Assembly: GCA_938028705.1 (NCBI GenBank)
Contig: CALIZI010000121.1
Location: 1-64,000, forward strand
Direction: 5' to 3'
Origin: an uncultured Saprospiraceae bacterium
Lineage (GTDB): Bacteria > Bacteroidota > Bacteroidia > Chitinophagales > Saprospiraceae
DNA length: 64,000 bases
Of the stretch, positions 5,702 to 61,582 are shown one piece after another. The position numbers were made by a program, and so were the translations under genes. Under the pieces are notes generated by a model. That model ran no database searches. It saw only the letters and a program-made list of their open reading frames with translations, and had not been told where the DNA came from. The first letter of the stretch is position 1. Each line of letters begins with the position of its first letter.

Positions 5702-5737
5702 GAGTAAATAATTTTAATAATAATTAGATTTTTGATA

Positions 5738-6094
5738 GGGCGCAGTTCCAAACTGTTCCGATTTATTTTCTTTTAAATATTTGATTATCAAAGGTTTATG
5801 TTTGTTTTCTAAAAATAGAATTAGACTTTTGAGATAAAAGGTGCAGTAGCACCGGCCCTATTTGTAACCGACGACTAACACTCCACCTCCTTAGCCGCAT
5901 AGCGGCGGCACTATTAAAATCGACGTATTAAGGGTGATTCCGATAGCTATCGGAACTATGCGCCTTTTTCGGTTTGGGGGAAGGTTTATTGTTACAAATA
6001 GTGCCGTTCCGATAGCTATCGGAATGCGACTATAAACAACTGATAATCAAATTTTTATAATTTCATTTTGAGCGGACAATTTAGAACTGCGCCC
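5738..6094. mobile_element. 357-bp non-autonomous transposable element with 9-bp target duplication
   Basis: Ends at 5738-5760 (starting GGGCGCAGTTC) and 6073-6094 (ending GAACTGCGCCC) form about 22-bp imperfect inverted repeats. Both are flanked directly by the identical 9-mer TTTTTGATA (5729-5737 and 6095-6103), a perfect target-site duplication. The interior is non-coding and has nested inverted repeats, including the palindrome CCGATAGCTATCGG twice and CTATTTGTAAC paired with GTTACAAATAG. It lies just upstream of the dockerin-subtilase gene. Confidence 0.85.
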
Positions 6095-6189
6095 TTTTTG
6101 ATAGAAGTTGAATAGTTAATTTATTGATTATTAATTAAAAATAAATTTTATTTAAAATTATTTAAATTAATAATAATGAGTTATTTAAC

Positions 6190-6356
6190 ATTGACAATGT
6201 CATGTTCGATTTTTATTTAATGTATTTTGCATTTTGCTCTTGAATTTGGGCTAAAACTCGTCTGACATTTAAACATTGCTGGAAAATATGACATCATCGG
6301 TGAATTTTGAAAATGTCTGACGAGTTTTAGCCCAAATTCGGAAAAAATATCCCTGC
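6190..6356. repeat. MITE-like element, TTGACAATG family (copy B, inverted loop, right end lost)
   Basis: Starts with TTGACAATGTCATGTTCG. Arms lie at 6242-6266 and 6315-6339. The 48-bp loop (6267-6314) is the reverse complement of the loop in the copy at 21570, while the flanking parts keep the same orientation. Similarity fades after AAAAAATATCCC, so the right terminus is missing or degraded. The 6357-6516 stretch holds nothing else recognisable. Confidence 0.75.
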
Positions 6357-6516
6357 CTAAAGCGAATACTCGTCAGACGAATCCTTTTATTTAAAGTGAT
6401 AATTTTATGAGACAAATCACCGTATTTCATAGCAACCTTCGTCTGCCGAGTAAACCCCGCAAGACACAAACTTAGACTGGTAGCCAATTTGTATTTTAAT
6501 TCATGCCCAATTATTT

Positions 6517-7563: not shown

Positions 7564-7684
7564 TTTTTTTGTGTTAATAAATAATTCATTTTTGTCGCGC
7601 AACAAATTTCTATTGATATATCTTTTGAGTATGGAGAAAGTCACCCTGTCGGAAGGTGTTTTTCTAGACTATGGACATAAAAAA

Positions 7685-7714
7685 AGCCCACCACATCCGA
7701 AGATGTAGCGGGCT
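7685..7714 (-). terminator. Rho-independent terminator of the gene at 7752
   Basis: AGCCCACCACATC pairs with GATGTAGCGGGCT around a short loop. Read on the minus strand the stem is followed by seven T (plus strand AAAAAAA at 7679-7685). It ends the leftward transcript from 7752-8234. Confidence 0.8.
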
Positions 7715-7751
7715 TTGCTGAATTTTTTAGGGATTATAATGTGGACTATTT

Positions 7752-8234
7752 TTATTGACAAACCGAACATTGCTTGCGAACACCCGGAGTGGGGTCGCCA
7801 CCAAATGTAATATTATTGCATCTTGCACTACCGGAAACTGTTTTTTCAACAAAACTTTCGCTTGTGCCGTAGCGGACTACCTGTGTACCTGAGAAGTTGA
7901 GTCTTTGGTGTTCGGCGGCAACAACCTTCCAGCAAGAGGAGCGTGCTTCCTCACAGACTGAGCATAGTTTGTGCAGTCCGGGAGCCGGGTCGCCAAATAC
8001 AGTATTGACGCATCTTGTACCGGCAGGAACTGTCATTTCAACAAATCTTCCATTGGCACCATAACGTATCATTTGTGTACCCGACATGTTGAGTCTTTGC
8101 CCTTCGGTAGCAATGACCGTCCAGTTATCACAAGATGCTGACTGTGCCGATGTCTCATTATTGAATAACATACATAGAGACATTAAAAGAAATGCAAACA
8201 AGCTGTGGAGTTTAAATACTTTTAATTTTTTCAT
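7752..8234 (-). CDS. Small secreted protein with two Cys-containing tandem repeats
   Basis: A 160-aa protein with a signal peptide (about residues 1-30, ends ETSAQ) and two repeats of about 60 aa. Each repeat follows C-W-V-A-E-QRL-SGTQ-RYG-FVE-V-RC-FGDP-PG-CSVC, with three to four conserved cysteines, suggesting disulfide-stabilised beta units. Similar repeats occur in secreted lectin-like or carbohydrate-binding modules, but I cannot name the family with certainty. It has its own promoter (8319-8349) and terminator (7685-7714), so it is a monocistronic, probably well-expressed exoprotein. Confidence 0.8.
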   Translation of the reverse strand: MKKLKVFKLHSLFAFLLMSLCMLFNNETSAQSASCDNWTVIATEGQRLNMSGTQMIRYGANGRFVEMTVPAGTRCVNTVFGDPAPGLHKLCSVCEEARSSCWKVVAAEHQRLNFSGTQVVRYGTSESFVEKTVSGSARCNNITFGGDPTPGVRKQCSVCQ

Positions 8235-8318
8235 GATTAATTTTTTGATGTGTAAAAAATGATGATTATAAAATGATGATTATAAAATGATTGCTTGTCC
8301 AATCATTAATTGATATTG

Positions 8319-8349
8319 CAAATTTATAGGATTAATACATTAAAACAAA
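8319..8349 (-). promoter_or_regulatory. Bacteroidota-type promoter of the 160-aa secreted protein
   Basis: On the minus strand TTTG (complement of CAAA at 8346-8349) is followed after 19 bp by TAAATTTG (8319-8326), matching TTTG-N19-TAnnTTTG. The start of transcription would fall near 8312, giving a leader of about 78 nt that contains a short direct repeat (AAAATGATGATTAT twice). Confidence 0.5.
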
Positions 8350-8573
8350 TTAGCATTTATTGAAAAAATCAGCAAAAAATGACATAAAAAAGACATTGCA
8401 TTGTTTTGGTATTCATTGTTTTATTGATTATAAATTACCTGTAAATAAGATTTTTACATAATTAAATTTTGATTAATTTATGATAAAAAAAATCCTTAAA
8501 AATCAATTGGTTTTTTGTGTGTTTTTTATTAAAAAAGTTTTTTTGATGATTTGAGGAGGCTTCATTTATCTTC

Positions 8574-8715
8574 ACCCAAGTTGAATATCTAGCCCCCAAA
8601 TTTTAAATCAAGTAATGGAATGTAACGCCGTCAGCCTGACGGCACACTGCCCCACTACCGTCAGGCTGACGGTGTTACATGTCACCCGATTTGGGGGCTA
8701 TATATCAACTTGGGT
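8574..8715. repeat. MITE-like element with ACCCAAGTTGA termini
   Basis: The left end (ACCCAAGTTGAATATCTAGC, then CCCCAAAT) pairs with the right end (ATTTGGGGGCTATATATCAA, then CTTGGGT), about 27 bp with few mismatches. Inside is a second inverted repeat, GTAACGCCGTCAGCCTGACGG against CCGTCAGGCTGACGGTGTTAC. No target duplication is obvious. The rest of the 8235-8832 spacer is AT-rich leader plus the next terminator. Confidence 0.7.
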
Positions 8716-8735
8716 TCAAATCAGAGATAAAAAAA

Positions 8736-8832: not shown

Positions 8833-11800
8833 TCAATCTACCTTTACACCATTGCGATATTTCACAATAAAAGCCTTACTGACACCAAGATTTTTAGCGT
8901 TTTCCTGAGCTGTCATCGCTTCTGACATGCTGTAATAATCTCCCAATAAGAAAACGGTCATCCCATCAGTGCGGGTCGTTTTTTGCATGGTACCGTGTTC
9001 GTGAAGTGCGGAGTGGAATACGGCATTATTGGAATTTCGGAAAGCACCGAGTTGTATTTTATAAACAATGGGATTGGAAGTTACTTTATAGCTTGAAGGC
9101 AAAGCGCGCGTTGTAGGAACAGAGCGGACTGTGGTGCTAATAAACGCATCAGGATAACCATTACGGCGGACGACAGCACGCGCACGCTCGGCATCAAGAC
9201 GGTTGTAGAATGTACCGATTTTATAAACAGTCATATCGCCTTTCATATTGGAATATATACTGCCGAGGTTTTCAAAACTGCGGAACTGCTCCGGGCGCGG
9301 TGTGTAGAATGCACCGATTTGTACGTCATATACTTCGCGGGTTTCGTTGGCGTAGCTGATGGAGGTCTTGGTCTCGTATGTTCCAATCACATCACGACTT
9401 GGAGTGCGGCGACTTCTTGAAGTTGGGCTGGGGAAGGTGCTGCTTCCGGTATTGATATTAACAGTTCTGACAGGAACAGTCGGCGACTTTGCCATCGGTT
9501 CTATGTATGTATGTGTCGGGGCAATTCGTTTGAGTTTAATGCCGAGTTGTGCCGTCATCGGGAAGCGATGTATGTTTTCTTCGTAACCGTTTTTGCTGAT
9601 GCGAATATTACAATTATTATCAAACCAATCTAATATTACCAAACCATTAAGATCAGTGGTATAGATTTTTCCATTGCAGTCACTGAGGTCAATTCGTACA
9701 TCATCAAGGGGGAGTTGAGTAGTTTCGTCGCGTACCATAAGTACCATTTGCTGAGGGCTACTGCTTCCCGCTGTATCGTCTGGATAATATGAACGGTTAA
9801 GTCTTGTCATTTCAATCGTAAGTTGCGTCATCATAGGGAAGTGACGCACGTTTGTTTCATAACCGTTTTTGCTGATACGAATGGCACAATTATCATCAAA
9901 GGGGTCTAAAATTACCAAGCCGTGTATATCTGTTGTATAAATTTTTCCATTGCAGGTACTTAGGTCAATTCGTACATTATTGAGGGGAAGTTGAGTCGTT
10001 TCGTCGCGTACCATGAGTACCATTTGCTCGGGGCTACTGCTTCCGGCTGTATCGTCTGGATAATACGAAGGGTTAAGTCGGGTCATTTCGATGCTGAGTT
10101 GTGTCATCATCGGGAAACGGTGTATAGTTTCTCCGTAGCCATTTTTGCTAATTCGGATAGCACAATCGCCGTCAAAGCGGTCTAAAATTGCCAAGCCGTT
10201 GACATCAGTAGTATAGGTTTTTCCATAACAGGCACTAAGACTGATGCGGACACCACGAAGCGGTAGTTGGGTAGCTTCGTCGCGTACCATGACGACCATT
10301 TGGTCAGGTGTGCTTACTGTTTGGCGTTTTTGTGTAGTGAAAGGTGCAGGGCTTGACGGTGGCGCAGCTGCGTATTCTATGGCTTGATAAATATCATCGT
10401 AACCCACACCGCCTGCACGATTGGAGGTGAAATAAGCGACTTCTTCACGAGTGTCGTAAATAAAATCATAATCGTCGTGAGATGAATTGATACCTTTGCC
10501 CATATTGATGCCTTGTGTCCATATTCTGTTGACATTAATGCTTTTATATATATCAAAACCACCATATCCGCCATACGAATCAGAAGCAAAGTAAAGGGTA
10601 TTGCCTGTATGGAAAGGACTGATTTCGTCGCCGTTTGTATTAACTTGTGGTCCGAGATTGATGGGGGCTGACCACTCATCGCCTTTTCTTTTACATACAT
10701 AAATATCAAATCCGCCATAGCCGCCGGGCATGTTGGAAGCGAAATAAAGCATGGTTCCCTGAGAGGTCAGGTGCGGGTAGCCATTGGAGTATTTGCGACT
10801 GTTATATGTAAAGGGTTTTTTATGTTTCCAGTCATTATATGAAAAAGCATCGGCAAAATAAATATTCATCTTGGCATTGCTGCTCAAGTATGGAACGGCA
10901 CCGTCGGTGAGGTTTTTATTGCGAACATAAGCAACTCTTCCGCCATCTGCTGTGAATGAAGGGTCACTCTCATTCAATACAGCCCGATAAGTTCTTATAA
11001 GCGGCTTAGGATTAGCTAATTTTGCACCGGAACGCATGGCAGTATAGACTTGGTTGGAGACACCATTGTTATTGCCATTGCCTGTGCGGAAGGTCGAAAA
11101 CATTAATCGGTTTTTGTAAAATGCAGGGGCAAAGTCGGAAGCTATACTGTTGAGATTTCTTACAAGACTGACACTAAATGGTGAATTTTCGGTGCTATTG
11201 GAAGAGGGATAATTATAAGTGTCGGTATAATGATTGACCGGTGCGGGATTGCTTTTTTCAAAGAAACTTGAATTGGTATCACTGTACCAGGCATATACGT
11301 AATCGTTGTCATTAGGAATACCTATACCGACAAAATTATTGCCTGATTTTTCGCGGGGTAGGGGATAGGCGTAAGGTTCACGATGAGCATCAAGTTCATA
11401 AGGTGTACCTACACTCACAGTGCCGCCTTTGTACCATGTATAAACATGATCGTTGTTGGAAATACCTATACTGACAATACTATTGACGGATTTTCCCGAG
11501 GGCAATGAGTATGAATAGGGAATGCTGTAAGCATCGAGTTCCGATGGTGTGCCTACACTCACAGTGCCGTCATCGTACCAAGCATAAGCATGACCATCAC
11601 TGTTAATACCTATACTTACAATATCATTTGCAGATTTTTTTGAAGCTAATGAGTATTTGTGAAGCGAATGGTAGTCATTGGGGTCAATTGTATTGCCTAC
11701 GCTCAGTGTGCCGTCATTATACCATATATAGCATAGGTTGTCATTGGCATGAATGCTTAGACCTACAATTTGTCGGGCTTTAGTGACCGAACTGAAACTT

Positions 11801-11874: not shown

Positions 11875-12008
11875 GATTTTAGATTTTAGAATGTTCAAAA
11901 AAATGTAAATAGGTACAATGACTGAATGAGTGAATAATTGAATGAGTGAATAAATCACTGTTTATCAATTTTTAATTCATAAAGTATTGTCAGATTATTT
12001 TTGTCTGA

Positions 12009-12136
12009 AGTTAATCAGTTAAATAGGCTAATTTATTGATTGTCAATATTTATTAATATTAAATAAAATTTATTATTAATTTAAAATTAGTAGATTAACC
12101 TGATTACCTGTTTAACCATTCAACTTATGTCCAAAG
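12009..12136. repeat. Direct repeat copy 1 in AT-rich spacer
   Basis: Resembles 12546-12701, ending in the same GATTACCTG and CAACTTATGTCCAAAG blocks. It is non-coding. The surrounding 11875-12870 spacer otherwise holds no recognisable gene. Confidence 0.6.
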
Positions 12137-12545
12137 TCGAATCATATTAAAACAAATTAATTTTTAGAACACGGGCGGAAATCGTACAGCAAATGTGGAA
12201 GTATGTGTGTTTGGTTATTTTTGTATTAAGGCTAATAATCAGGGTCTTATACAAATACAGTTTTAGATATGCTTTCAGTCTTTTTTGAGGTTTGGGCAAA
12301 ATTTCAAATAGAATAAGAAATTTCAAAATAGAGTTTTACTCCGAATACATTTGTAAAATTAAGCATATTAAAATTCCCATGCTTGATAAAAAAATAATAT
12401 AAGTTAAGAAAATAACAGCATAGTAAACATTGTATTTATTTGATAATCAGATTTTTATAATGAAAAAAAGTTAAATAAATAATGCATTTTTTGTAGTAAT
12501 AAAATTTTTTATTTGTTGTGTAATAATGGCTTAGATTTTGGACAA

Positions 12546-12701
12546 TGATTAATCAGATAATTAGATTAATTTATTGATTATCAGTGTTTTAATAATATTA
12601 ATTAATCATTAATTTTAAAAATGTTAAATAAAGTTTATTTTTAATTAAAAGTCATTAAATTAACCTGATTACCTGTTCAACCGTTCAACTTATGTCCAAA
12701 G
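12546..12701. repeat. Direct repeat copy 2 in AT-rich spacer
   Basis: Second copy of the element at 12009-12136 with the same order of blocks (TTAATCAG, TTTATTGATT, then ACCTGATTACCTGTTCAAC and CAACTTATGTCCAAAG). The two are about 540 bp apart and about 75-80% alike by eye. A hairpin follows at 12786-12821 (AAAGTTCATCA with TGATGAACTTT). Confidence 0.6.
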
Positions 12702-12875
12702 CCCGGTAATGGGTTTACACTTATATATCTCTCAAAAAATGAAAAAGTTACCCTTCGAATGTGTTTTTTTTAATTTTAGAAATGAAAAGTTCATCACATT
12801 TATAATAACATGATGAACTTTGTTTGACTTTTGGTGTGTGGTGCCGATCATCTTTCTGCGAGCTTGTCTAAAAAA

Positions 12876-12899
12876 GCCTGCTCAAACCATTGAGCAGGC
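12876..12899 (-). terminator. Rho-independent terminator of the 45-aa gene
   Basis: GCCTGCTCA (12876-12884) pairs perfectly with TGAGCAGGC (12891-12899) with a 6-base loop. On the minus strand it is followed by a T-run (plus strand AAAAAA at 12870-12875). It lies 33 bp beyond the stop of the small gene. Confidence 0.85.
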
Positions 12900-12931
12900 T
12901 TCTGCTGATAGGGATATTTATAAAAATATGC

Positions 12932-13069
12932 TTATTCGGAGCTAGTATCCTGTCCATTATTAGGATATACAGTGACTACTGCGGCAATATTATTATCAGT
13001 GCCATCTGTGGGATTAGAATTTGTAGTGTTTGAAGTGTTGGTGTTTTGATTATCTTCTAAATAATTCAT
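12932..13069 (-). CDS. Small Asn/Thr-rich protein, 45 aa
   Basis: Starts MNYLEDNQNTNTSNTTNSNP, continues with DGTDNNIAAVVTV and ends YPNNGQDTSSE. No signal peptide, no Cys and no membrane segment; the middle IAAVVTVY is the only hydrophobic piece. I recognise no family. What makes it credible is its context: a TTG-N17-TATCTTTG promoter on the same strand (13207-13234) and a strong terminator (12876-12899) frame it exactly. It could be a short secreted or processed peptide (the hydrophobic Val-rich stretch recalls the core of the peptides at 60346-61206), but it lacks their leader and GG motif. Confidence 0.55.
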   Translation of the reverse strand: MNYLEDNQNTNTSNTTNSNPTDGTDNNIAAVVTVYPNNGQDTSSE

Positions 13070-13206
13070 GATAGTGTAAATTTTATAACGTGAATGATAG
13101 AATATTTAATACTTCAAAATTTTGTATTGTTGGCGTAATTGATAATTTTAATAAGTAAAAACTTTGTATTCAGTAATTTATTGAAGTATTGTTTTTTATT
13201 ACGCTA

Positions 13207-13234
13207 CAAAGATAGCTGATATTTATGCAGACAA
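13207..13234 (-). promoter_or_regulatory. Promoter of the 45-aa gene
   Basis: The minus strand reads TTG (13234-13232), 17 bp, then TATCTTTG (13214-13207), fitting the Bacteroidota consensus TTG-N17-23-TAnnTTTG. The leader would be about 130 nt. The remaining spacer to 13450 holds only AT-rich sequence. Confidence 0.5.
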
Positions 13235-13450
13235 TCAATTAGTATTTTTTTTAGAAATCTATAAAAAATGATGTTTTTTTAGACGATTTAATTTAATTAT
13301 TTATTTGTATCTTGCTTATAATTAATTTTTTATGTAAATTACAAATCTAATATCTCTCTTTTAAAAATCAGCAATTACCTACCTTTTTAAGCCCTTAAAT
13401 TGTCCGAAAAAATAAATATTATAACACGATGAATACACACATAAGCACAA

Positions 13451-14875
13451 ATGAAGGATACCAAACTCATTAAAGTCATAGAAAAATTCTCGAAAACTGA
13501 TTTGAAGAGGATGAAAGAATTTGTCCATTCTCCCTTTTTTCGGGCAAGCAAAACAGAACGGGATTTATTCGATTTTATCTACAAGTATGCGCCTGATTTT
13601 GACCACAAAAAATTCACACCCGAACAAGCGGCTAAGTACATTTTTACGGATAAAAAATACGATGCCTCTGCGCTGATTAAAATACAATCAAGGCTTTTTA
13701 AACTGGTGGAACTCTTTATATATTATTATTTTAGAGATGAAAATCTGCCTGATGTAGAAGTAGCGTTGATGAAATTTTATGACAGAGAAAATCTGACTTC
13801 GCAAGTTGAAACCACATATAAAAAAATTCAGAAAAAACAAGAAGCCTACCCGCACCGGGATTTTATGCACTATTTCAATCAATTAACCATAGAAAAGCAA
13901 TACAAAGATTTTTTGGTGGGCAAATTTGAAGATGGTAAAGGCAATACGCATTATCAAAAGGTGATGGAAATCTTAGACATTTTTTACCTGACAGAGAAAC
14001 TCATACAAATTTGTCAATTATATAATCGTCAGATGTTGACGAATGTGAATTATGAGGTAAAATTAATGGATGAAATACTGGCATTTTTGCCCGATAGCGA
14101 TTATAAAGATGTGCCAATAATAAAAATATGGTACACTGCGCTATCCTTACTACATTCTGCCGATAAATATGAACATTACCGCCAACTCAAAACACTACTG
14201 ATAGAACATAACAGCTTACTGAATCAACGTGATAAGCGTGCGCTATATACCTATTTGGAAAATAATACAAGCATGGTCTTTGAGAGTGATGCTTATTATA
14301 AGGCTTTATTTGATTTGTATTCCAGACAACTGGAAGATGCGACCATTTATATTGACGGCTACCTGCTACCAACCATTTTTAAAAACATCGTAACGGTAGG
14401 TTTGCGACTGGAACATCTGGAGTGGACGGAGCAGTTTTTGGAAAACAACAAAGACAAAATTGTTCCCGAATACGAGGACAGAGACGACGTATATAGTTAT
14501 TCGCTGGCACAATTATACTTCAAACAACAAAAAATAGATGATGTACTTGATGTCCTCAATCGCACGGTTTTCAATGATATTTATATCAAAATGGACATCC
14601 GCCGAATGTATCTCAAAGTCTATTACGAAATGAAATATGACGATATGTTGGAAGATATGGTCAATAGTTTTCGTGTATTTCTGACCAGTCACCAAGATAC
14701 TATTCCTGCCATACATATACAGGCACACCGCGATTTCATCAATGTCATTTACAATATTTACCGCACAATGAAAAAGGATAAAAAGCGCATCGAAGCCATG
14801 GAAAATCAAATCGCTGAAATAAATATTTTGCCCGAAAAAAGTTGGTTGTTGGAAAAACTGGATACTTTACGATAA
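13451..14875 (+). CDS. Conserved helical protein of unknown function (paralogue of 32169-33605)
   Basis: A 474-aa soluble protein, nearly all helix by composition, with the look of a TPR-like or alpha-solenoid protein. It has a family hallmark near the N-terminus (LKRMKEFVHSPFFRASKTE) and ends with SWLLEKLDTLR. The same architecture and motifs occur in the 478-aa protein at 32169-33605 (SPYFNKNEDCLHLFRLL near the start; KNIVTVG in the middle; DWLLEKIAQLKG at the end). No signal peptide, no nucleotide-binding motif, no catalytic signature. Members of this type appear as multicopy hypothetical proteins in Saprospiria-like genomes. Function not known; a scaffold or regulator is possible. Confidence 0.8.
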   Translation: MKDTKLIKVIEKFSKTDLKRMKEFVHSPFFRASKTERDLFDFIYKYAPDFDHKKFTPEQAAKYIFTDKKYDASALIKIQSRLFKLVELFIYYYFRDENLPDVEVALMKFYDRENLTSQVETTYKKIQKKQEAYPHRDFMHYFNQLTIEKQYKDFLVGKFEDGKGNTHYQKVMEILDIFYLTEKLIQICQLYNRQMLTNVNYEVKLMDEILAFLPDSDYKDVPIIKIWYTALSLLHSADKYEHYRQLKTLLIEHNSLLNQRDKRALYTYLENNTSMVFESDAYYKALFDLYSRQLEDATIYIDGYLLPTIFKNIVTVGLRLEHLEWTEQFLENNKDKIVPEYEDRDDVYSYSLAQLYFKQQKIDDVLDVLNRTVFNDIYIKMDIRRMYLKVYYEMKYDDMLEDMVNSFRVFLTSHQDTIPAIHIQAHRDFINVIYNIYRTMKKDKKRIEAMENQIAEINILPEKSWLLEKLDTLR

Positions 14876-15051: not shown

Positions 15052-16080
15052 ATGCAAACACAATTCACTTTTGATGACCACACACATCGCCGACTCAATA
15101 TTCTGACGGGAGATTGGGTACTCGTCTCGCCACATCGAATGAAGCGACCGTGGCAGGGGAAGGTCGAACAGGTCGCGCCCGATACACGCCCGCAATATGA
15201 CTCTAAATGTTACCTCTGCCCGACCAACACCCGCGCAGGTGGTGCAGCCACCAATCCCGACTATTCCGATACCTTTGTTTTTGATAATGACTTTATGGCA
15301 ATCACGCCCGATATTCCCGAAGGTGATTTGAATAAAGAAAATTTGCTGGTCGCAAAAAGTGAACGCGGACTATGCCGAGTGATATGCTATTCGCCGCGTC
15401 ACGACCTCACTATGGGCAATATGACTATTGATAATCTATTGAAAGTCATTGATTTGTGGACACAACAATATACCGAACTCGGCAGCCGTGATTTTATCAA
15501 TTACGTTCAGATTTTTGAAAATAAAGGCGCGATAATGGGATGTAGCAACCCGCACCCACATGGTCAAATATGGGCGCAAGAGACTCCTCCTACCGAAGTA
15601 GTAAAGGAAACACAAAGGCAAAAAGCGCACTATGAAAAGCATGGACGTACACTACTGAATGATTACTTGGAACTTGAAATCAAGGAAGATAAACGCATCG
15701 TCTGCGCCAATGAACACTTCGTCACGCTTGTTCCTTTTTGGGCGGTTTGGCCCTACGAAACGATGATTGTGAGTAGGGAAGCCATAGGTGATTTGACGCA
15801 ATTGGACGAGGCACAACGCACAAGTTTAGCTCAAATTTTACAACAAACTACCAAGATGTACGATAAAGTTTTTGACACTTCATTTCCCTATTCTATGGGC
15901 ATCCACCAAAGTCCGACGGATGGCAAAGCACATCCCGAATGGCATTTTCATATTCATTTTTATCCACCCTTGCTGCGCTCTGCAACGGTCAAAAAATTCA
16001 TGGTCGGCTACGAAATGATGGGCGAACCGCAACGCGACCTTACCGCAGAGTTTATTGCTGATAAGTTGAGGGGGGTGTAA
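15052..16080 (+). CDS. galT: Galactose-1-phosphate uridylyltransferase
   Basis: A 342-aa cytoplasmic enzyme of the Leloir pathway that exchanges UMP between UDP-glucose and galactose-1-phosphate. The HIT-superfamily active site is visible as NPHPHGQIW with H168 as nucleophile next to H170, equivalent to H166 and its neighbour in E. coli GalT. Zinc ligands C53 and C56 (CYLC) are present, and the C-terminal half has the second HIT-like fold with HPEWHFHIHFYPPLL. Length matches the family (about 348). Start ATG 15052 gives the normal N-terminus. No other Leloir gene is adjacent. Confidence 0.95.
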   Translation: MQTQFTFDDHTHRRLNILTGDWVLVSPHRMKRPWQGKVEQVAPDTRPQYDSKCYLCPTNTRAGGAATNPDYSDTFVFDNDFMAITPDIPEGDLNKENLLVAKSERGLCRVICYSPRHDLTMGNMTIDNLLKVIDLWTQQYTELGSRDFINYVQIFENKGAIMGCSNPHPHGQIWAQETPPTEVVKETQRQKAHYEKHGRTLLNDYLELEIKEDKRIVCANEHFVTLVPFWAVWPYETMIVSREAIGDLTQLDEAQRTSLAQILQQTTKMYDKVFDTSFPYSMGIHQSPTDGKAHPEWHFHIHFYPPLLRSATVKKFMVGYEMMGEPQRDLTAEFIADKLRGV

Positions 16081-16281
16081 TGTTGAAATGTTGTAGTGTT
16101 GTATGTCGGGAACGAGCTTCGATTATCCACATATTTATCCCGAAAGCTTTCGGGAGTGGGTAATGAACCGTAAAAAGTATGTGAAAACGATAAGGTACTG
16201 ACCTCGTATCGTAGAAACGCAACGCAGGCTGGAAGCACTGCGCTAGGGGTGTCAAGCTAAAGCGTTTTTTAACAAAAAAAA

Positions 16282-16454
16282 GGCATGTTTAAATTTGCTG
16301 TAAAAGTAGTTAACACTTTTTCACGCAGAGAGCGCAGAGTTCGCAGAGGTTTAATTATCAAATCTCTGCGACCTCTGCGTTCTCTGCGTGATTTACTCAA
16401 TTTGGAGCATTTGTTACATTGCAAAAAAGTGTCAACCGCATTTCTAAACATGCC
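16282..16454. mobile_element. MITE-like element with GGCATGTTTA ends (copy E1)
   Basis: Begins GGCATGTTTAAATTTGCTG and ends CTAAACATGCC. Inside is the 69-bp CGCAGAG palindrome (16322-16390). Its flanks are both eight A (16274-16281 and 16455-16462), compatible with the 8-bp target duplication seen in copy E2 at 27014. The rest of the 16081-16723 spacer is AT-rich leader of the MORN gene. Confidence 0.8.
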
Positions 16455-16723
16455 AAAAAAAATACCTCATTAGTTCGATAAATTCTAATTGAACACTCCA
16501 ATGCTATTTTTTCTTGTTTAATCGTCAAATATTTAATAGATTTACACATTAGAAATTAAGTGAAATCCGCATTTATTACCAAGATTATACTGAAATGTTA
16601 TTTTTTTAATTAATTTAAATTATTTGAAAATTTATTTTTGATTAAAAATGAGTTTGTTATAAAAAACAATTTTTTTATTATAATAAAAAAACGTCTATTT
16701 CGGTATCGTTAAAATCATATTTA

Positions 16724-17821
16724 ATGTATCCTATAAAGTATCTGATAGCATTTACCGCACTATTTTTGAGTTGGACAGTTTGTAACAACCTATCGGCAGA
16801 AACCATGATTAATACACAACAAGAGGGTTGTATTAAAGGTGACTGTGAGGACGGTACGGGCATGTACGTATATCCGAATGGCGATATATATAAAGGTGAA
16901 TGGCTGAATAATAAACGTCATGGAATCGGTACGATTGTCTATGAGGGTAATCCGGCAAGAAGGGGCGATATGTATGACGGCGAATGGCAGGAAAATCGCA
17001 GGCATGGCAAAGGTACATACTCGTGGGCAAATGGCGATGCGTATGACGGTGATTGGAAAAATGATAAGATGTTTGGCAGTGGCAAACTCTATAAATCTGA
17101 CGGCGAATGGTATGAGGGTGACTGGGAAGCCAATGTCAAAAAAGGACAAGGTACATACAAGTATAACAAAACACCGGAATGGGAAGCACACCTCTATGTA
17201 GGTAAGTGGGATAATGATAAACCCTGTTGCAACGGTGAGTATAAATACTTGAACGGAGAGGTATTTTCAAAAGACAAAAAAGCGACTACATCGGGTGCGG
17301 GTTGCAAAATAGGGGATTGTAAGAATGGTTATGGCGAGTATCAGTATGCTCAAAGTCGGCGGTATGAAGGTACTTGGCGCAATGGTCGCTTTGACGGTGA
17401 TGGAACGTTTTATTACGAAACGGGCGAAAAATATATAGGTTCTTGGATAGCCAATAAACGAGATGGCGAGGGGCAGTTTTATAGTCAGGGTGGTCAGTTG
17501 ATTTACGATGGCAACTGGAAAGATGACACTCAAAACGGTTATGGTATTTATCATTATCAAAACGGTACGCGTTATGCTGGACAATGGGAAGATGGTGTGC
17601 GCTATGGCAAAGGCAGATTTACGATACCAAAGGTAGGTTACTACGAAGGCGAATTTAAAGATGACCGCTTCAATGGCGAAGGTATTTTTTATTATGCCGA
17701 CAGGTCGAGGTATGAAGGTGTCTGGAAAGATAATGTCAAACATGGTGCAGGTAAAGAATATGACCCGCAGGGCAATATCTATCGTGAAGGAACTTGGTCG
17801 GAAGGAAATTTTGTAGAATGA
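16724..17821 (+). CDS. Exported MORN-repeat protein
   Basis: 365 aa with an N-terminal signal-like segment (MYPIKYLIAFTALFLSWTVC, about residues 1-25) and then roughly eleven MORN repeats of the form Y-G-W-N-K-HG-G-Y (for example YKGEWLNNKRHGIG, YDGEWQENRRHGKG, YEGVWKDNVKHGAG). MORN repeats form extended beta-hairpin rods and usually serve as lipid- or protein-binding scaffolds. A Cys-containing insert (CCNGEYKYLNGE through GCKIGDCKNG) splits the array in two, and the array starts with the similar GCIKGDCEDG, so the protein looks like an internal duplication of a GCxxGDC-headed module. Probably periplasmic. Confidence 0.85.
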   Translation: MYPIKYLIAFTALFLSWTVCNNLSAETMINTQQEGCIKGDCEDGTGMYVYPNGDIYKGEWLNNKRHGIGTIVYEGNPARRGDMYDGEWQENRRHGKGTYSWANGDAYDGDWKNDKMFGSGKLYKSDGEWYEGDWEANVKKGQGTYKYNKTPEWEAHLYVGKWDNDKPCCNGEYKYLNGEVFSKDKKATTSGAGCKIGDCKNGYGEYQYAQSRRYEGTWRNGRFDGDGTFYYETGEKYIGSWIANKRDGEGQFYSQGGQLIYDGNWKDDTQNGYGIYHYQNGTRYAGQWEDGVRYGKGRFTIPKVGYYEGEFKDDRFNGEGIFYYADRSRYEGVWKDNVKHGAGKEYDPQGNIYREGTWSEGNFVE

Positions 17822-17825
17822 CAAA

Positions 17826-17912
17826 AGTAGCGAGTATTGAGTAGCGAGTATCGAGTGACGAAATTTTCAAATAATATTCCCTCGTAACTCACTACTCACT
17901 ACTCGTAACTCA
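17826..17912. repeat. AGTAGCGAGT-type imperfect repeats
   Basis: Left half has AGTAGCGAGTATTGAGTAGC and the right half the complementary ACTCACTACTCACTACTCGT, forming a loose long hairpin between the MORN gene and the thioesterase. Larger arrays of the same words occur at 23915-24117. Confidence 0.55.
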
Positions 17913-17914
17913 TA

Positions 17915-18619
17915 ATGATATGGCACAATAAATATATGATGCACACTTTTATGTGTGATGCAGAGCGCAAAGTTCGGCTGACGGCAATATGTCATTGCTT
18001 GCAAGAGACGGCAGGGCTTCATGCAGTGGAGTATCAATTGGGATATGAGGGCATGAAGGCAAATAATCAGGCTTGGGTGCTGAATCGTTTGCGGGTTGAG
18101 GTGAATCGTTATTTGGATTGGAAGGATACTTTGAAAGTGGAAACTTGGGTGCAGATGATGCGCGGTCCTTTTTCGCAGCGTTTCTTTTTATTGAAGGATG
18201 AGAAAGATGAAGTGATTGGTTCGGCGAATACTTTTTGGGTGGTGATTGACAGCGTGACTCATAAACCCAAACGACTGAAATCGACACAAGATGTGCCTAT
18301 TATTGATACGATTCCGCCTTGTGGTGTGGCTGAGAAAATTGCTTTACCTGACGACTTAGAACTCATTGATAATCATAAAGTTAGGCATAGTGACCTCGAC
18401 TTGCTTCAACATGTCAATAACACCAAATATATTGAATGGATATTGGATACACAACTGACCGACAGACCACCGCGCCCTCAGCGCATTGAACTCAATTTTA
18501 CAGGCGAAGCGCGATTGGGAGATACTATCAATATTCTAGTTTCTACATCCTCTCACCCACAATTTTATCAATTAAAAAATGCGGAGAACGATAAAGAAAT
18601 TTGTAAAGTTCAAATATAA
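17915..18619 (+). CDS. Acyl-ACP thioesterase (double hot-dog)
   Basis: A 234-aa cytoplasmic hydrolase of the FatA/FatB-like acyl-ACP thioesterase family, releasing fatty acids from acyl carrier protein. The first hot-dog domain (about 1-125) has the family pattern LQETAGLHAVEYQLGYEGM and WVLNRLRVEVNRYLDW; the second (140-234) has HSDLDLLQHVNNTKYIEW, with the conserved Asp, His and Asn of the active-site helix region. Length fits the bacterial members. Its stop codon (18617-18619) is the first three bases of a perfect 42-bp palindrome that can terminate both this gene and the convergent one. Confidence 0.88.
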   Translation: MIWHNKYMMHTFMCDAERKVRLTAICHCLQETAGLHAVEYQLGYEGMKANNQAWVLNRLRVEVNRYLDWKDTLKVETWVQMMRGPFSQRFFLLKDEKDEVIGSANTFWVVIDSVTHKPKRLKSTQDVPIIDTIPPCGVAEKIALPDDLELIDNHKVRHSDLDLLQHVNNTKYIEWILDTQLTDRPPRPQRIELNFTGEARLGDTINILVSTSSHPQFYQLKNAENDKEICKVQI

Positions 18620-18658
18620 AATTGTAGGGTCAGGGCATGCCCTGACCCTACAATTTTA
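18617..18658. terminator. Perfect 42-bp palindrome, bidirectional terminator
   Basis: The half-site TAAAATTGTAGGGTCAGGGC is followed by A, and the second half is its exact reverse complement, centred between 18637 and 18638 with no unpaired loop. GC-rich in the middle with T tracts at both ends. It lies between convergent genes and includes the thioesterase stop codon. Confidence 0.8.
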
Positions 18659-18675
18659 CGATTGTTTTATGATTT

Positions 18676-19653
18676 TTAAAATGTCGGATGCACAGGCTGA
18701 TTCTCCAATATACCTTCAATTTTCTCCATGATTTCATCCGTCAACAGTGGCAAGACATCCAAAGAAGTCAAAGTTTCTTCCAAGTGATGCGCCTTCGATG
18801 CACCTAAAATGACGGTGCTGACATTCGGATTTTTGGCGCACCATGCGACAGCCATTTTGGGCATCGTTGTACCGATTTCATTGGCGATTTTAGTGAGTTC
18901 GCGTACTTTTATAATGCGGTCTTCGGTCAATGATTTGTCTTTTAGCCATTCCATACCTTCATTGGTCAGGCGTGTGCCTTCGGGGAATTTATCATTATAC
19001 TTACCCGATAAAACACCCGACGCGAGCGGCGACCAAATCGTAGTTCCCAAACCTACCGTCTTGTAAATCTGTGAATACTCGACCTCGAATTTATCGCGGT
19101 GAAACATGTTGTACTGCGGCTGTTCCATCGTTGGTCCGATGAGTCCGTATTTTTCAGCTGCAACATGTGCTTCCATGATTTCTTGTGCGCTCCATTCGGA
19201 CGTTCCCCAATACAAGATTTTGCCTTGCTCTATTAAGGTATTCATTGCGCGGACAGTTTCCTCAATTGGCGTATTTTTATCGGGTCGATGACAAAAATAT
19301 AAGTCCAGATAATCGACCTGCAAACGCTTCAATGCCGCATGACAAGCCTCCGTAATGTGCTTGCGACTCAAGCCACTTTGGTTGGGCAATTTACCGCCCC
19401 AAAATACCTTGCTCGACACCACAAAAGTATCGCGCGACCAACCTGTTTTTTTTAAAATATTGCCCATGACAATTTCCGATTTGCCATGTGCATAGACTTC
19501 GGCATTGTCAAAGAAATTGACTCCGGCATCATACGCCATTATCATGAGTTTTTCGGCTACATCGTCGCCGATTTGTGCGCCAAAGGTCAGCCATGACCCA
19601 AAGGACAAAGTGCTGACTTGTAATCCTGATTTTCCTAATCTTCTGTATTCCAT
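18676..19653 (-). CDS. Aldo/keto reductase, voltage-gated K+ channel beta-subunit-like
   Basis: A 325-aa NADPH-dependent oxidoreductase with a TIM-barrel fold, of the AKR6/Kv-beta-like and YghZ-like group. The catalytic tetrad is visible: D49 and Y54 in FFDNAEVYAHG, K82 in SSKVFWGG, and a His in YFCHRPD. The GLSRKHI stretch and the C-terminal NVSTVILGA cofactor loop are typical. Physiological substrate unknown; relatives reduce methylglyoxal and other aldehydes. Single gene, convergent with the thioesterase. Confidence 0.93.
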   Translation of the reverse strand: MEYRRLGKSGLQVSTLSFGSWLTFGAQIGDDVAEKLMIMAYDAGVNFFDNAEVYAHGKSEIVMGNILKKTGWSRDTFVVSSKVFWGGKLPNQSGLSRKHITEACHAALKRLQVDYLDLYFCHRPDKNTPIEETVRAMNTLIEQGKILYWGTSEWSAQEIMEAHVAAEKYGLIGPTMEQPQYNMFHRDKFEVEYSQIYKTVGLGTTIWSPLASGVLSGKYNDKFPEGTRLTNEGMEWLKDKSLTEDRIIKVRELTKIANEIGTTMPKMAVAWCAKNPNVSTVILGASKAHHLEETLTSLDVLPLLTDEIMEKIEGILENQPVHPTF

Positions 19654-59008: not shown

Positions 59009-59099
59009 AACGTCAAACTTATGGACAACAACGTCAAAAATGTAATAACAAAGTGCTACTGTTTCATATCCTGCCGAGCTGCAACAGATACCGCATCGA

Positions 59100-59283
59100 G
59101 TGCGGTATGACGATAGCTTTTTGGGTATTTTGGTTGGGGGATTTTGCTTGACATTATCTGTATCTTGAATGTCGTGTGTTATTCTCAATATCCTTTTTCG
59201 CGCTCAGGCGCGACGGCAGCTAAAGACAGCCGGTACATGTAAGCATCAGGTGCGGTATGACGATAGCTTTTTGGGTATTTTGG
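59100..59283. repeat. Two exact 34-bp direct repeats in the spacer before xisH
   Basis: GTGCGGTATGACGATAGCTT+TTTGGGTATTTTGG occurs at 59100-59133 and 59250-59283. The first copy overlaps a hairpin ATACCGCA / TGCGGTAT (59088-59108). These may be remnants of an insertion or recombination between pentapeptide gene and xisH. Nothing coding is present. Confidence 0.6.
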
Positions 59284-59312
59284 GTCAATTACTTTTATTT
59301 CCACCCCTCCGA

Positions 59313-59365: not shown

Positions 59366-59779
59366 ATGGCAAGAGACAAATACCATAGTTTAGTTCGGGA
59401 ACTTTTGGAGCAAGAAGGTTGGACCATAACACACGACCCATTGTATGTGAAAACAGCTTTGGGCAAAGTGGAAGTGGATTTAGGTGCAGAAAAACTGATT
59501 GGTGCAGAAAAAGAAGGCGAGAAGATTGCTGTCGAAATAAAGAGTTTTATAGGACGTTCCAAATTACAGGATTTGTATAAAGCATTGGGACAGTTCATAT
59601 TTTATTTACCCGCTTTAAAACGTCAAGAGCCTGATAGGGAATTATATTTAGCCATTCCTCAAGCGGCTTATAAATTTTTCTTTAGAGACTCCATTGCGGA
59701 AGAAATTATAACGACCAATCAGTTGAAATTTGTCGTATATGACATAGATGATTCTAAAATTACATTATGGACAAAATAA
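59366..59779 (+). CDS. xisH: XisH family protein (PD-(D/E)xK-type fold)
   Basis: 137 aa, the usual length of XisH. Pattern MARDKYHSLVRELLEQEGWT at the start, then the restriction-nuclease-like catalytic motifs: D38 in GKVEVDLGAE and E57-x-K59 in IAVEIKSF, then LYKALGQFIFYLPALK. XisH and XisI are required for excision of the fdxN element in heterocyst-forming cyanobacteria and are found as pairs mainly in filamentous cyanobacteria; in Bacteroidota they look horizontally acquired. The gene overlaps xisI by 13 bp. The recombinase XisF is not present, so a role in DNA excision here is doubtful. Start ATG 59366 was chosen over the TTG at 59342. Confidence 0.9.
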   Translation: MARDKYHSLVRELLEQEGWTITHDPLYVKTALGKVEVDLGAEKLIGAEKEGEKIAVEIKSFIGRSKLQDLYKALGQFIFYLPALKRQEPDRELYLAIPQAAYKFFFRDSIAEEIITTNQLKFVVYDIDDSKITLWTK

Positions 59780-60108
59780 ATACATACACAAAGATCATCA
59801 AAAATGTGATAACAGCAATACATGATCGTTACGCCAAACCCTCTAATGATGCAGAGCATCACTTGATTATAGATGAAAAGCGACATAGTTATTTGTTACT
59901 TTCCGATGGTTGGCTTGGTGCTAGTCGCTTTTATGGTATTTTGATTCATGCTGAAGTAAAAAAAGATGGTAAAGTGTGGCTGCATGATGATAATACAGAG
60001 TTGATTGTAGTAGATTGGTTATTGGAAAGAGGGATTCCTAAAAAAGATATTGTCTTGGGTTGGCACGCTCCAAGCATGAGAGAGGATACGGAATTTGCGG
60101 TGATGTAG
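59767..60108 (+). CDS. xisI: XisI family protein
   Basis: 113 aa, typical XisI size. Motifs: IHDRYAKPSNDAEHHLIIDE, HSYLLLSDGW, RFYGILIHAEVKKDGKVWLH, NTELIVVDWLLERGIPKKDI and LGWHAPSMRE at the end. It is translated from within the end of xisH. Known as the partner of XisH; biochemical role unproven. A paired regulator, toxin-antitoxin or nuclease-control role has not been shown. Confidence 0.92.
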   Translation: MDKINTYTKIIKNVITAIHDRYAKPSNDAEHHLIIDEKRHSYLLLSDGWLGASRFYGILIHAEVKKDGKVWLHDDNTELIVVDWLLERGIPKKDIVLGWHAPSMREDTEFAVM

Positions 60109-60176: not shown

Positions 60177-60212
60177 ACAAAAGCCTTTTGATTCATTCAA
60201 AGGGCTTTTGTC
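60177..60212 (+). terminator. Terminator after xisI, first copy
   Basis: ACAAAAGCC-TTT pairs with AAAGGGCTTTTGT around TGATTCATTC, ending in a T-rich stretch. Almost identical stem-loops recur at 60498-60527 and 61226-61260, as part of the duplicated peptide cassettes. Confidence 0.7.
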
Positions 60213-60252
60213 ATTTACAGGCGTTTGCAGCAAAAAAAAGCTGACTTTTTTT

Positions 60253-60291
60253 CTCACTGCACCATCTGTGCAGTGAGAGTCTGTATATTTG
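60253..60291 (+). promoter_or_regulatory. Operator palindrome plus -7 box upstream of peptide 1
   Basis: CTCACTGCACCATCTGTGCA+GTGAG (60253-60277) is an almost perfect dyad. Six bases later comes TATATTTG (60284-60291), the -7 box. The dyad covers the -33 region where a TTG is missing, a classical position for an activator or repressor site. Exactly the same layout is at 60570-60608 and 61302-61340. Confidence 0.6.
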
Positions 60292-60345
60292 AAAAGTCAA
60301 CAGCTCACTACAGAGCTATTTTTTAATATTCAAAACATTTTTATT

Positions 60346-60468
60346 ATGAAATTATCAGGTAAAAAATCTGCGCCCAAGAAAAGTCCATTTATGGCTATCA
60401 ATAAGCAAGGACTCAAAGAAGTGAAGGGTGGAATAGTAGTTGTTGAAGTTGTTGAAGGCGATACTTAA
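60346..60468 (+). CDS. Double-glycine-leader peptide 1 (RiPP or bacteriocin-like precursor)
   Basis: 40 aa. Leader MKLSGKKSAPKKSPFMAINK+QGLKEVKGG, ending in GG at residues 28-29, then a short core IVVVEVVEGDT. Basic, Ser/Lys-rich leaders that end in an LKxVKGG helix are characteristic of Bacteroidota GG-type natural product precursors exported by peptidase-containing ABC transporters. The core has no Cys and no Ser, one Thr, and acidic residues, so it does not look like a lanthipeptide. First of four tandem relatives (60346, 60663, 60863, 61090). Own promoter and operator. No maturation or export gene is in the window. Confidence 0.75.
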   Translation: MKLSGKKSAPKKSPFMAINKQGLKEVKGGIVVVEVVEGDT

Positions 60469-60497
60469 TTTTATCGAAGAAGCTACAACTAAAAACT

Positions 60498-60527
60498 AAA
60501 GCCTTTTGATTCATTCAAAGGGCTTTT
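60498..60527 (+). terminator. Terminator after peptide 1, second copy
   Basis: AAAGCCTTTTGATTCATTCA+AAGGGCTTTT, the same stem-loop as at 60177-60212. It separates peptide 1 from peptide 2. Confidence 0.7.
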
Positions 60528-60569
60528 GTCATTTACAGTCGTTTGCAGCAAAAAAAGCCGACTTTTTTT

Positions 60570-60608
60570 CTCACTGCACCATCTGTGCAGTGAGAGTCTG
60601 TATATTTG
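60570..60608 (+). promoter_or_regulatory. Operator palindrome plus -7 box upstream of peptide 2
   Basis: The dyad CTCACTGCACCATCTGTGCA+GTGAG lies at 60570-60594 and TATATTTG at 60601-60608, an exact repeat of the arrangement before peptide 1, including the 6-base gap AGTCTG. Confidence 0.6.
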
Positions 60609-60662
60609 AAAAGTAAACAGCTCATCACAGAGCCATTTTTTAACATTCAAAACATTTTTATT

Positions 60663-60794
60663 ATGAAATTAGCAAGTAAAAAATCGACAGACAAGAAGAT
60701 GAATTTTACCACTATCAATAAGACCGAACTTCTGCAAGTCAAAGGTGGTGGGAAAAATGTACATGATTCTGATAGTGAGGAAGGAATAGATTAA
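60663..60794 (+). CDS. Double-glycine-leader peptide 2
   Basis: 43 aa from ATG 60663 (an upstream in-frame ATG at 60606 lies on the promoter box and is ignored). Leader MKLASKKSTDKKMNFTTINK+TELLQVKGGG, core KNVHDSDSEEGID. It is the most divergent of the four: the core is hydrophilic and acidic with Asp/Ser/Glu instead of the Val/Ile-rich cores of the other three. It may represent a different product with the same leader, or a decaying copy. Followed by peptide 3 without a terminator. Confidence 0.7.
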   Translation: MKLASKKSTDKKMNFTTINKTELLQVKGGGKNVHDSDSEEGID

Positions 60795-60862
60795 AGCCCT
60801 ACATCTTCAAAAACTCAACCGCTCCTCACAGAGCTATTTTTAATATTCAAAACATTTTCATT

Positions 60863-60985
60863 ATGAAATTAGCAAGTAAAAAATCCGTGCCCAAGAAAAG
60901 TCCATTCACAGCGATTAATAGGCAAGAGCTTAAGCAAGTGAAAGGAGGGGTAATCGTAATAGTTGCTGACGACACTCCTGCTTAG
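60863..60985 (+). CDS. Double-glycine-leader peptide 3
   Basis: 40 aa. Leader MKLASKKSVPKKSPFTAINR+QELKQVKGG, core VIVIVADDTPA. It has no operator or promoter box of its own; the sequence before it (CCGCTCCTCACAGAGCTATT) is the leader end of the cassette only, so it is probably read through from peptide 2. Too short for usual gene calling. Confidence 0.75.
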   Translation: MKLASKKSVPKKSPFTAINRQELKQVKGGVIVIVADDTPA

Positions 60986-61089
60986 AGTAATTTTATCCTA
61001 TTGCATCATCTGTGCAGTGAGGCTCTGTATCTATAAAAACACAACCGCTCCTCACAGAGCTATTTTTTAATATTCAAAATATTTTTATT

Positions 61090-61206
61090 ATGAAATTAGC
61101 AAGTAAAAAATCTGCGCCAAAGAAAAGCCCATTCACAGCTATCAATAAGCAAGGACTCCAACAGGTAAAAGGTGGAGCATTGGTTATTGTTGAAGTGGCA
61201 TTTTAG
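61090..61206 (+). CDS. Double-glycine-leader peptide 4
   Basis: 38 aa. Leader MKLASKKSAPKKSPFTAINK+QGLQQVKGG, core ALVIVEVAF. A half operator (CATCTGTGCAGTGAG, near 61005-61019) and a degenerate -7 (TATCTATA) precede it, so its own promoter looks worn. Shares the Val/Ile-rich core type with peptides 1 and 3. Terminator at 61226-61260. Confidence 0.75.
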   Translation: MKLASKKSAPKKSPFTAINKQGLQQVKGGALVIVEVAF

Positions 61207-61225
61207 TTAAAATACCATACAAATA

Positions 61226-61260
61226 ACAAAAGCCTTTTGATTCAATCAAAGGGCTTTTGT
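61226..61260 (+). terminator. Terminator after peptide 4, third copy
   Basis: ACAAAAGCCTTTTGATTCAA+TCAAAGGGCTTTTGT, as at 60177 and 60498. Confidence 0.7.
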
Positions 61261-61301
61261 CATTTACAGTCGTTTGCAGCAAAAAAAATCTGACTTTTTT
61301 T

Positions 61302-61340
61302 CTCACTGCACCATCTGTGTAGTGAGAGTCTGTATATTTG
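61302..61340 (+). promoter_or_regulatory. Orphan fifth operator and -7 box without a peptide gene
   Basis: CTCACTGCACCATCTGTGTA+GTGAG (61302-61326) and TATATTTG (61333-61340) repeat the cassette start, but the similarity stops about 61355 at AAACCGCTCTCC, and a transposase-like remnant on the other strand begins. It marks a truncated fifth cassette. Confidence 0.55.
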
Positions 61341-61355
61341 AAAAGTAAACCGCTC

Positions 61356-61493
61356 TCCTTCTTCGGAAACTTTGGTTTCATCACCGTAGTAAAGGTCTTG
61401 CCCTGCTCTGGATTGAGTTTCCAATAGAGAAAGTGCCTCTTTACGAACCTCTAACAATGTTCTGAATTTAAGCAAAAACTTGTCAAGTAGTAT
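61356..61493 (-). pseudogene. Transposase fragment, IS630-like (DDE_3)
   Basis: Read leftward, this stretch gives LLDKFLLKFRTLLEVRKEAL, then SLLETQSRAGQDLYYGDETK and VSEEGE. The block DLYYGDET followed by a glycine-rich turn is the look of IS630-type transposases near their second catalytic Asp. Upstream (61494-61582) is AT-rich and in the other direction the frame ends in the orphan cassette. Only about 46 codons survive; no terminal repeats were found. Moderate to low confidence. Confidence 0.4.
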
Positions 61494-61582
61494 AAGCAAA
61501 AATCGCAAATGAAATACATTTTTACAACAGTATAAAAGTATATTTTTAAAAATACTCCGTAATTTGTGGCAAAATACAAAAT

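What the first reader, a model, noticed from the sequence alone, without database searches (positions are those of the whole stretch)
60177..61340. Tandem array of four double-glycine-leader peptides with repeated operator-promoter cassettes
Four short genes (38-43 aa) share the leader MKLxxKKSxxKKSPFxAINK and the LKxVKGG end, but have different cores (IVVVEVVEGDT, KNVHDSDSEEGID, VIVIVADDTPA, ALVIVEVAF). Full cassettes also repeat a terminator, a dyad CTCACTGCAC..GTGCAGTGAG over the -33 region and a TATATTTG -7 box. Conserved leader, variable core and a shared control site suggest a family of secreted peptides (signal, bacteriocin or modified product). The Cys-free, Val/Ile plus acidic cores do not fit a standard lanthipeptide. 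The transporter and modification enzymes are not in the window.
Basis: partly seen in the sequence, partly recalled or inferred. Interest (0 to 1): 0.85.

Follow-up and report, generated by a model that had tools for sequence, protein, structure and literature searches.

The report
Trans-regulated array of Cys-free GG peptides
Four tiny genes in a row encode short peptides built for export; they carry the same control switch as a distant antibiotic-type (lanthipeptide) gene cluster that holds the genome's only matching exporter, but their cores lack the amino acids that cluster's enzymes need, so they look like unmodified secreted messages or effectors borrowing its regulation and export.

Summary
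In detail: four paralogous double-glycine (GG) leader genes (40, 43, 40, 38 aa) lie between repeats of terminator, 27-bp dyad and TATATTTG box. The missing partners lie on another contig (C309) of the same genome: the only C39 transporter, HlyD, a small winged-helix regulator, LanC, LanB, one genuine class I lanthipeptide precursor and two more Cys-free peptides. All six strong copies of the dyad in the 8-Mb genome sit at these peptide cassettes: three in the window, three on C309. So the array is a satellite of the lanthipeptide locus, sharing its control site and presumably its exporter. Its leaders keep the C39 recognition residues but have lost the LanB-type LxLxKx5L motif. The cores have no Cys, and three of the seven Cys-free cores have no Ser or Thr either, so they cannot be lanthipeptides. 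Relatives of the regulator lie beside C39 transporters and GG peptides across Bacteroidia, and several sit beside a CTGCA-N7-TGCAG dyad 10 nt before the -7 box, its likely operator. What the peptides do outside the cell is not shown; signal or effector is likelier than pore-forming bacteriocin or decay. No expression data.

The parts
60177..60212 (+). Terminator hairpin between xisI and the array
   Evidence: RNA fold -20.5 kcal/mol, z -7.8; repeat D3
60252..60278 (+). Operator dyad 1 (TCTCACTGCAC-N5-GTGCAGTGAGA), core CTGCA-N7-TGCAG
   Evidence: same site three times on C309
60284..60291 (+). TATATTTG, -7 promoter box of cassette 1, 10 nt after TGCAG
60346..60468 (+). GG peptide gene 1, core IVVVEVVEGDT
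60495..60530 (+). Terminator hairpin after gene 1
   Evidence: -16.3 kcal/mol, z -5.1
60569..60595 (+). Operator dyad 2
60601..60608 (+). TATATTTG, -7 box of cassette 2; probably drives genes 2-3-4 as one operon
   Evidence: no terminator found between genes 2, 3 and 4 (and reading)
60663..60794 (+). GG peptide gene 2, core GKNVHDSDSEEGID
60863..60985 (+). GG peptide gene 3, core VIVIVADDTPA (operator lost)
60998..61035 (+). Decayed cassette before gene 4: right half-operator 61012-61021 and altered -7 box
   Evidence: alignment
61090..61206 (+). GG peptide gene 4, core ALVIVEVAF
61226..61262 (+). Terminator hairpin after gene 4
   Evidence: -20.2 kcal/mol, z -7.4
61301..61340 (+). Orphan operator (one mismatch) and TATATTTG box without a peptide gene

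Best explanation
The window holds a satellite array of Cys-free GG-leader peptide genes belonging to a class I lanthipeptide locus on another contig (C309) of the same Bacteroidota genome. Shown by sequence: common leader ancestry, common operator-promoter, and a single C39 transporter. Inferred: the small winged-helix protein encoded between the transporter genes and the peptides on C309 binds the CTGCA-N7-TGCAG dyad, which lies where a -33 element would be, and switches C309 and window promoters together. The precursors reach the C309 C39 transporter through V-4, L-7 and I-12, are cut after GG and leave through HlyD. LanB/LanC ignore them, because the LxLxKx5L leader motif and the Cys needed for rings are gone. 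The products would be unmodified 9-14-residue acidic, mostly Val/Ile-rich peptides, most likely cell-cell signals or accessory effectors made when the lanthipeptide is made.
For: Cassette DNA recurs at only one other locus, C309, at 84-91% identity. The dyad has 6 sites in 8 Mb, 5 exact, all in GG-peptide cassettes; the reversed control pattern has none. One C39 protein in the genome. C309 carries C39-ABC, HlyD, LANC_like and Lant_dehydr N and C domains. Its Cys-containing precursor meets NF038153 (39.3 bits, cut-off 22), and one Cys-free C309 peptide just passes (22.5). Outside this genome the nearest leaders in the phylum search are LanA genes next to LanC. C39 recognition positions -4, -7 and -12 are hydrophobic in 8 of 8; LxLxKx5L (V allowed at its second L) occurs in C309 LanA and in 7 of 8 other LanAs but in 0 of 7 Cys-free peptides (motifs from PMC6363468 and PMC7268733). 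Regulator: 9 of 13 relatives examined lie within about 10 kb of a C39-ABC gene, most with GG peptides, as on an annotated Aureibacter plasmid. Dyads with exactly a 7-nt spacer: 6 versus 0-1 for any other spacer in 91 kb of regulator loci. The fixed 10-nt gap to TAnn(T/A)T recurs in G975, G894, G516 and G460. The regulator is predicted as a winged helix, pLDDT 94, like the DNA-binding domain of TM1602/NiaR, TM 0.72.
Against: No transcript, binding or peptide data. C309 and the window contig are not joined; that they share one genome rests on the assembly bin and on the DNA match. The operator motif was defined partly from the loci later counted. It is absent near many relatives of the regulator, including the Aureibacter plasmid, and in G460 most of its ten sites precede other genes. 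The peptides were found in no other genome searched, so function cannot be tested by conservation. No receptor was found; it was not searched for.
Confidence: 0.7

Rival explanations
1. The four genes are decaying lanthipeptide precursors: duplicated leaders whose cores were truncated and are no longer functional.
For: Gene 3 has lost its operator, gene 4 half of it, and one cassette has no gene. The array is absent from same-genus genomes searched, and the DNA upstream of paaZ is unrelated in a sister with 95% identical paaZ DNA.
Against: All eight paralogues have intact frames. Leaders are under purifying selection after near-saturating synonymous change. Six of seven Cys-free cores share a type (Val/Ile-rich stretch with acidic residues, 9-12 aa), which random truncation would not give.
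Confidence: 0.15
2. The peptides are small unmodified bacteriocins (class II-like).
For: GG leader with C39 export is the class II bacteriocin route. Weak matches below cut-off to Bacteriocin_IIc, ComC and the Chryseobacterium bacteriocin-like leader. Co-regulated with a lanthipeptide.
Against: Cores are only 9-14 aa with net charge -1 to -4, unlike typical cationic 25-60 aa bacteriocins (general knowledge). No immunity gene was identified next to the array.
Confidence: 0.15
3. The peptides are modified by an enzyme encoded elsewhere (for example a radical SAM protein or ATP-grasp ligase) and give a new modified product.
For: Conserved-leader, variable-core arrays are typical of modified peptide families. 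The C71 paralogue has a weak match below cut-off to TIGR04149 (14.4 bits, cut-off 25).
Against: No such enzyme was seen next to the window array or on C309. Three of seven cores lack Ser, Thr and Cys. The window leaders match no modified-peptide family above cut-off.
Confidence: 0.12
4. The dyad is not an operator but an RNA hairpin or a transposition signal copied with the genes.
For: It can fold and scores as terminator-like. The array lies near repeated DNA.
Against: It lies upstream of the promoter box at an invariant distance. The arm sequence, not only its pairing, is kept in distant genomes at a fixed 7-nt spacer beside homologous regulators.
Confidence: 0.08

Closest known systems
Bacteroidota class I lanthipeptide precursors (NF038153, LxLxKx5L leaders, C39 export; pinensins are from this phylum)
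   Same: Homologous leader, GG cleavage site, and the same operator as a LanB/LanC/C39 locus in the same genome
   Different: Leader motif lost, no Cys, cores of 9-14 aa, genes away from LanB/LanC
Pneumococcal rtg and com/blp GG-peptide systems (PMC7018657)
   Same: Several co-regulated GG peptides served by a C39 transporter; [quoted passage not shown]
   Different: Gram-positive, Rgg-type or two-component control; here a single-domain winged-helix regulator and lanthipeptide-derived leaders in a Gram-negative bacterium
Streptococcal short hydrophobic peptides (SHP)
   Same: Similar size and a Val/Ile-rich plus acidic make-up (analogy from general knowledge)
   Different: SHPs have no GG leader and use PptAB export and intracellular Rgg receptors

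Membership tests
Class I lanthipeptide precursor (LanA) | Match to the class I leader model NF038153 above cut-off | tested here: not met
   None of the four window peptides matches; C309 LanA 39.3 and C309 18936 22.5 bits versus cut-off 22
Class I lanthipeptide precursor (LanA) | LxLxKx5L leader motif of Bacteroidota LanAs (PMC7268733) | tested here: not met
   0 of 7 Cys-free peptides; met by C309 LanA and 7 of 8 other LanAs
Class I lanthipeptide precursor (LanA) | Cys plus Ser/Thr in the core to form lanthionine | tested here: not met
   No Cys in any; the gene 4, C71 and C309a cores have no S, T or C
C39 (PCAT) transporter substrate | GG site with hydrophobic residues at -4, -7 and -12 (PMC6363468) | tested here: met
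   V-4, L-7 and I/L-12 in 8 of 8
C39 (PCAT) transporter substrate | A C39 transporter in the genome that cleaves and exports them | tested here: inconclusive
   Exactly one C39-ABC gene, on C309; cleavage and export not testable here
TIGR04149 rSAM-modified RiPP | Model match above cut-off | tested here: not met
   No match for the window peptides; C71 14.4 bits versus cut-off 25
Class II unmodified bacteriocin | Match to Bacteriocin_IIc or ComC above cut-off | tested here: not met
   Best 14.6 versus 27.1 and 17 versus 20.4 bits
Class II unmodified bacteriocin | Antimicrobial activity with a cognate immunity protein | not testable with these tools
   Needs synthetic peptides; no immunity gene was identified next to the array

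The most novel reading that the evidence does not exclude
A peptide-signalling system in Gram-negative Bacteroidota evolved from lanthipeptide precursors: leaders kept for export, cores turned into short acidic-hydrophobic messages, and the whole regulon (lanthipeptide and satellites) switched through a new family of single-domain winged-helix regulators acting on CTGCA-N7-TGCAG promoters.
Probability: 0.3. Interest if true: 0.8.

Novelty: new variant of a known kind. Interest (0 to 1): 0.55.

Why it matters
It shows that a lanthipeptide locus can have unlinked satellite arrays of peptides that its own ring-forming enzymes cannot act on, which genome mining by clustering would miss. It also gives a testable regulator-operator pair for GG-peptide/C39 loci across Bacteroidia, for which the literature searches here found no description, and which could be used to find hidden precursors by their promoter. 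If the cores are signals, peptide communication in Bacteroidota becomes directly testable.

Tried and rejected
Pfam and NCBIfam scans of the window peptides gave only matches below cut-off. A genome-contig scan with LanB gave one distant locus without similar peptides. Dyad-like hits with up to 3 mismatches in relatives were mostly not followed and are probably chance, except G005. Sequence search of the regulator family against the PDB gave only noise, mainly antibodies. Plasmid relatives of the regulator lack the dyad. A transposase-like reading of the minus strand after the array had no Pfam support. Paper searches found no description of the operator or of Cys-free satellite precursors; the library lacks most subscription journals.

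Full report
Observation. The window carries four paralogous small genes on the + strand at 60346-60468, 60663-60794, 60863-60985 and 61090-61206. Their products share a 29-residue leader ending in VKGG and have different cores: IVVVEVVEGDT, GKNVHDSDSEEGID, VIVIVADDTPA and ALVIVEVAF. They are the only four of 346 ATG ORFs of 30-60 aa in the window that fit MK...[VIL]xGG. Between genes 3 and 4 the leader has 10 synonymous and 4 non-synonymous codon differences (dS 1.71, dN 0.06). The cores of these two genes have 2 synonymous and 6 non-synonymous differences. So these are real coding genes with a conserved leader and a variable core.

Array anatomy. Full cassettes (terminator, A/T tracts, dyad TCTCACTGCAC-N5-GTGCAGTGAGA, TATATTTG box) precede genes 1 and 2, and a third lies after gene 4 without a peptide gene. 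The terminator hairpins are strong (z -5 to -8). Gene 3 has no operator, gene 4 keeps the right half-operator, and no terminator separates genes 2, 3 and 4 (reading). The simplest reading is one transcript for gene 1 and one for genes 2-3-4. A 5'-UTR hairpin followed by a T run (60302-60317) is kept in several copies; its role is unknown.

The missing partners. The genome (8.0 Mb, 483 contigs, 98.5% complete) has one C39 protein, on contig C309. The cassette DNA recurs at only one other locus, the same contig (contig C71 shares only the terminator). C309 reads: C39-ABC 9240-11432, HlyD 11933-13249, a small HTH gene 13341-13676, GG peptide 13765, Cys-containing precursor 14098, LanC, LanB 15587-18811, GG peptide 18936. 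The C39-ABC aligns over its length with PCAT1 structures (4ry2). LanB aligns with NisB and with 9g04. LanC has the AWCYG and CHG metal-site motifs seen in its solved relatives (the metal-site role is general knowledge). A further Cys-free paralogue lies on contig C71 with a terminator but no operator. The peptide model finds exactly eight members in this genome.

One regulon. The dyad with up to 3 mismatches has six sites in 8 Mb, five exact, three in the window and three on C309, all in peptide cassettes; the reversed control pattern has none. The small HTH protein is predicted as a single winged-helix domain (pLDDT 94) resembling the DNA-binding domain of TM1602/NiaR (TM 0.72; E-values only about 0.04). 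Relatives occur in 38 of 395 Bacteroidia genomes. Of 13 neighbourhoods read, nine have a C39-ABC gene within about 10 kb and most have GG peptides beside the regulator. An annotated Aureibacter plasmid shows regulator, TolC, HlyD, C39-ABC and several GG peptides together.

Operator. In 30 regulator loci (91 kb) CTGCA-N7-TGCAG occurs six times, against 0-1 for any other spacer from 3 to 12. In G975 and G460 it lies at the 3' end of the regulator gene, upstream of a GG peptide, as on C309. A strict pattern with the fixed distance to the promoter box is found in 6 of 38 genomes with the regulator and 6 of 357 without (Fisher p = 3e-4; apparently the same genome draw). This count is partly circular, because the motif was first seen at the own, G975 and G460 loci. 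The G516, G894 and second G975 sites were found afterwards. G460 has ten sites, mostly before other genes, so the family is not limited to peptides. G005, a same-genus genome, has what looks like a relic operator and UTR without a peptide. A fixed distance favours an activator, but repression is not excluded.

What the peptides are. Leaders: V-4, L-7 and I/L-12, the residues bound by C39 domains (PMC6363468), are kept in all eight. The LxLxKx5L motif of Bacteroidota class I precursors (PMC7268733) is present in C309 LanA and in 7 of 8 other LanAs (V allowed at the second L) but in none of the seven Cys-free peptides. Model scores fall from LanA (39.3 bits) through C309 18936 (22.5), C309 13765 (15.9) and C71 (14.0) to no match for the window genes. 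Cores: no Cys; gene 4, C71 and C309 13765 have no Ser, Thr or Cys at all, so dehydration and cyclisation are impossible there (sequence logic). Six of seven have a Val/Ile-rich stretch and acidic residues, with net charge -1 to -4. I therefore infer unmodified short secreted peptides that descend from lanthipeptide precursors and share their control and exporter. Signal or accessory effector is the likelier role from size and charge; bacteriocin, decay and modification by an unknown enzyme remain possible.

Evolution. In the sister genome G002 paaZ is 95% identical in DNA, but similarity stops at its start and the upstream DNA is unrelated; the peptides were not found in the same-genus genomes searched, some of them incomplete. 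The array is therefore an accessory feature, probably recent, and its uneven cassettes point to growth and decay by duplication (inference).

Noticed in passing
window 59366-60108: A XisH-XisI pair (PF08814 3e-48, PF08869 1.5e-33) lies directly upstream of the array.
   Followed up: partly
window 59040-59300; contig C71 14069-14238: A dispersed repeat (up to 92% identity, 19 matches in the genome, several on C205) lies near both the array and the C71 orphan peptide; possibly involved in spreading the genes.
   Followed up: partly
window 61301-61340: The orphan operator-promoter points towards paaZ (61583) and might bring it under the same control; untested.
   Followed up: no
window 61355-61500, minus strand: Possible remnant of a transposase frame (DLYYGDETKVSEEG); no Pfam match, so unconfirmed.
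   Followed up: partly
L022 (C309) 3507-8718: The lanthipeptide contig also carries a lipoprotein with a thiol-activated cytolysin domain (PF01289 9e-30), a ParE toxin and an AbiEi/AbiEii pair.
   Followed up: no
L158 (Aureibacter plasmid pAT7) 3342-4124 and 9696-9845: A 15-kb plasmid with the regulator, TolC, HlyD, a C39 transporter and about five GG peptides annotated as hypothetical or not annotated.
   Followed up: partly
genome G460, ten sites: Ten copies of the operator-promoter pattern, mostly before genes unrelated to peptides; the regulator may control a wider regulon there.
   Followed up: partly
L079 (G181 C92) 122-1556: The closest LanB relative (55% identity) sits with three leader-related precursors that carry Cys.
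   Followed up: partly
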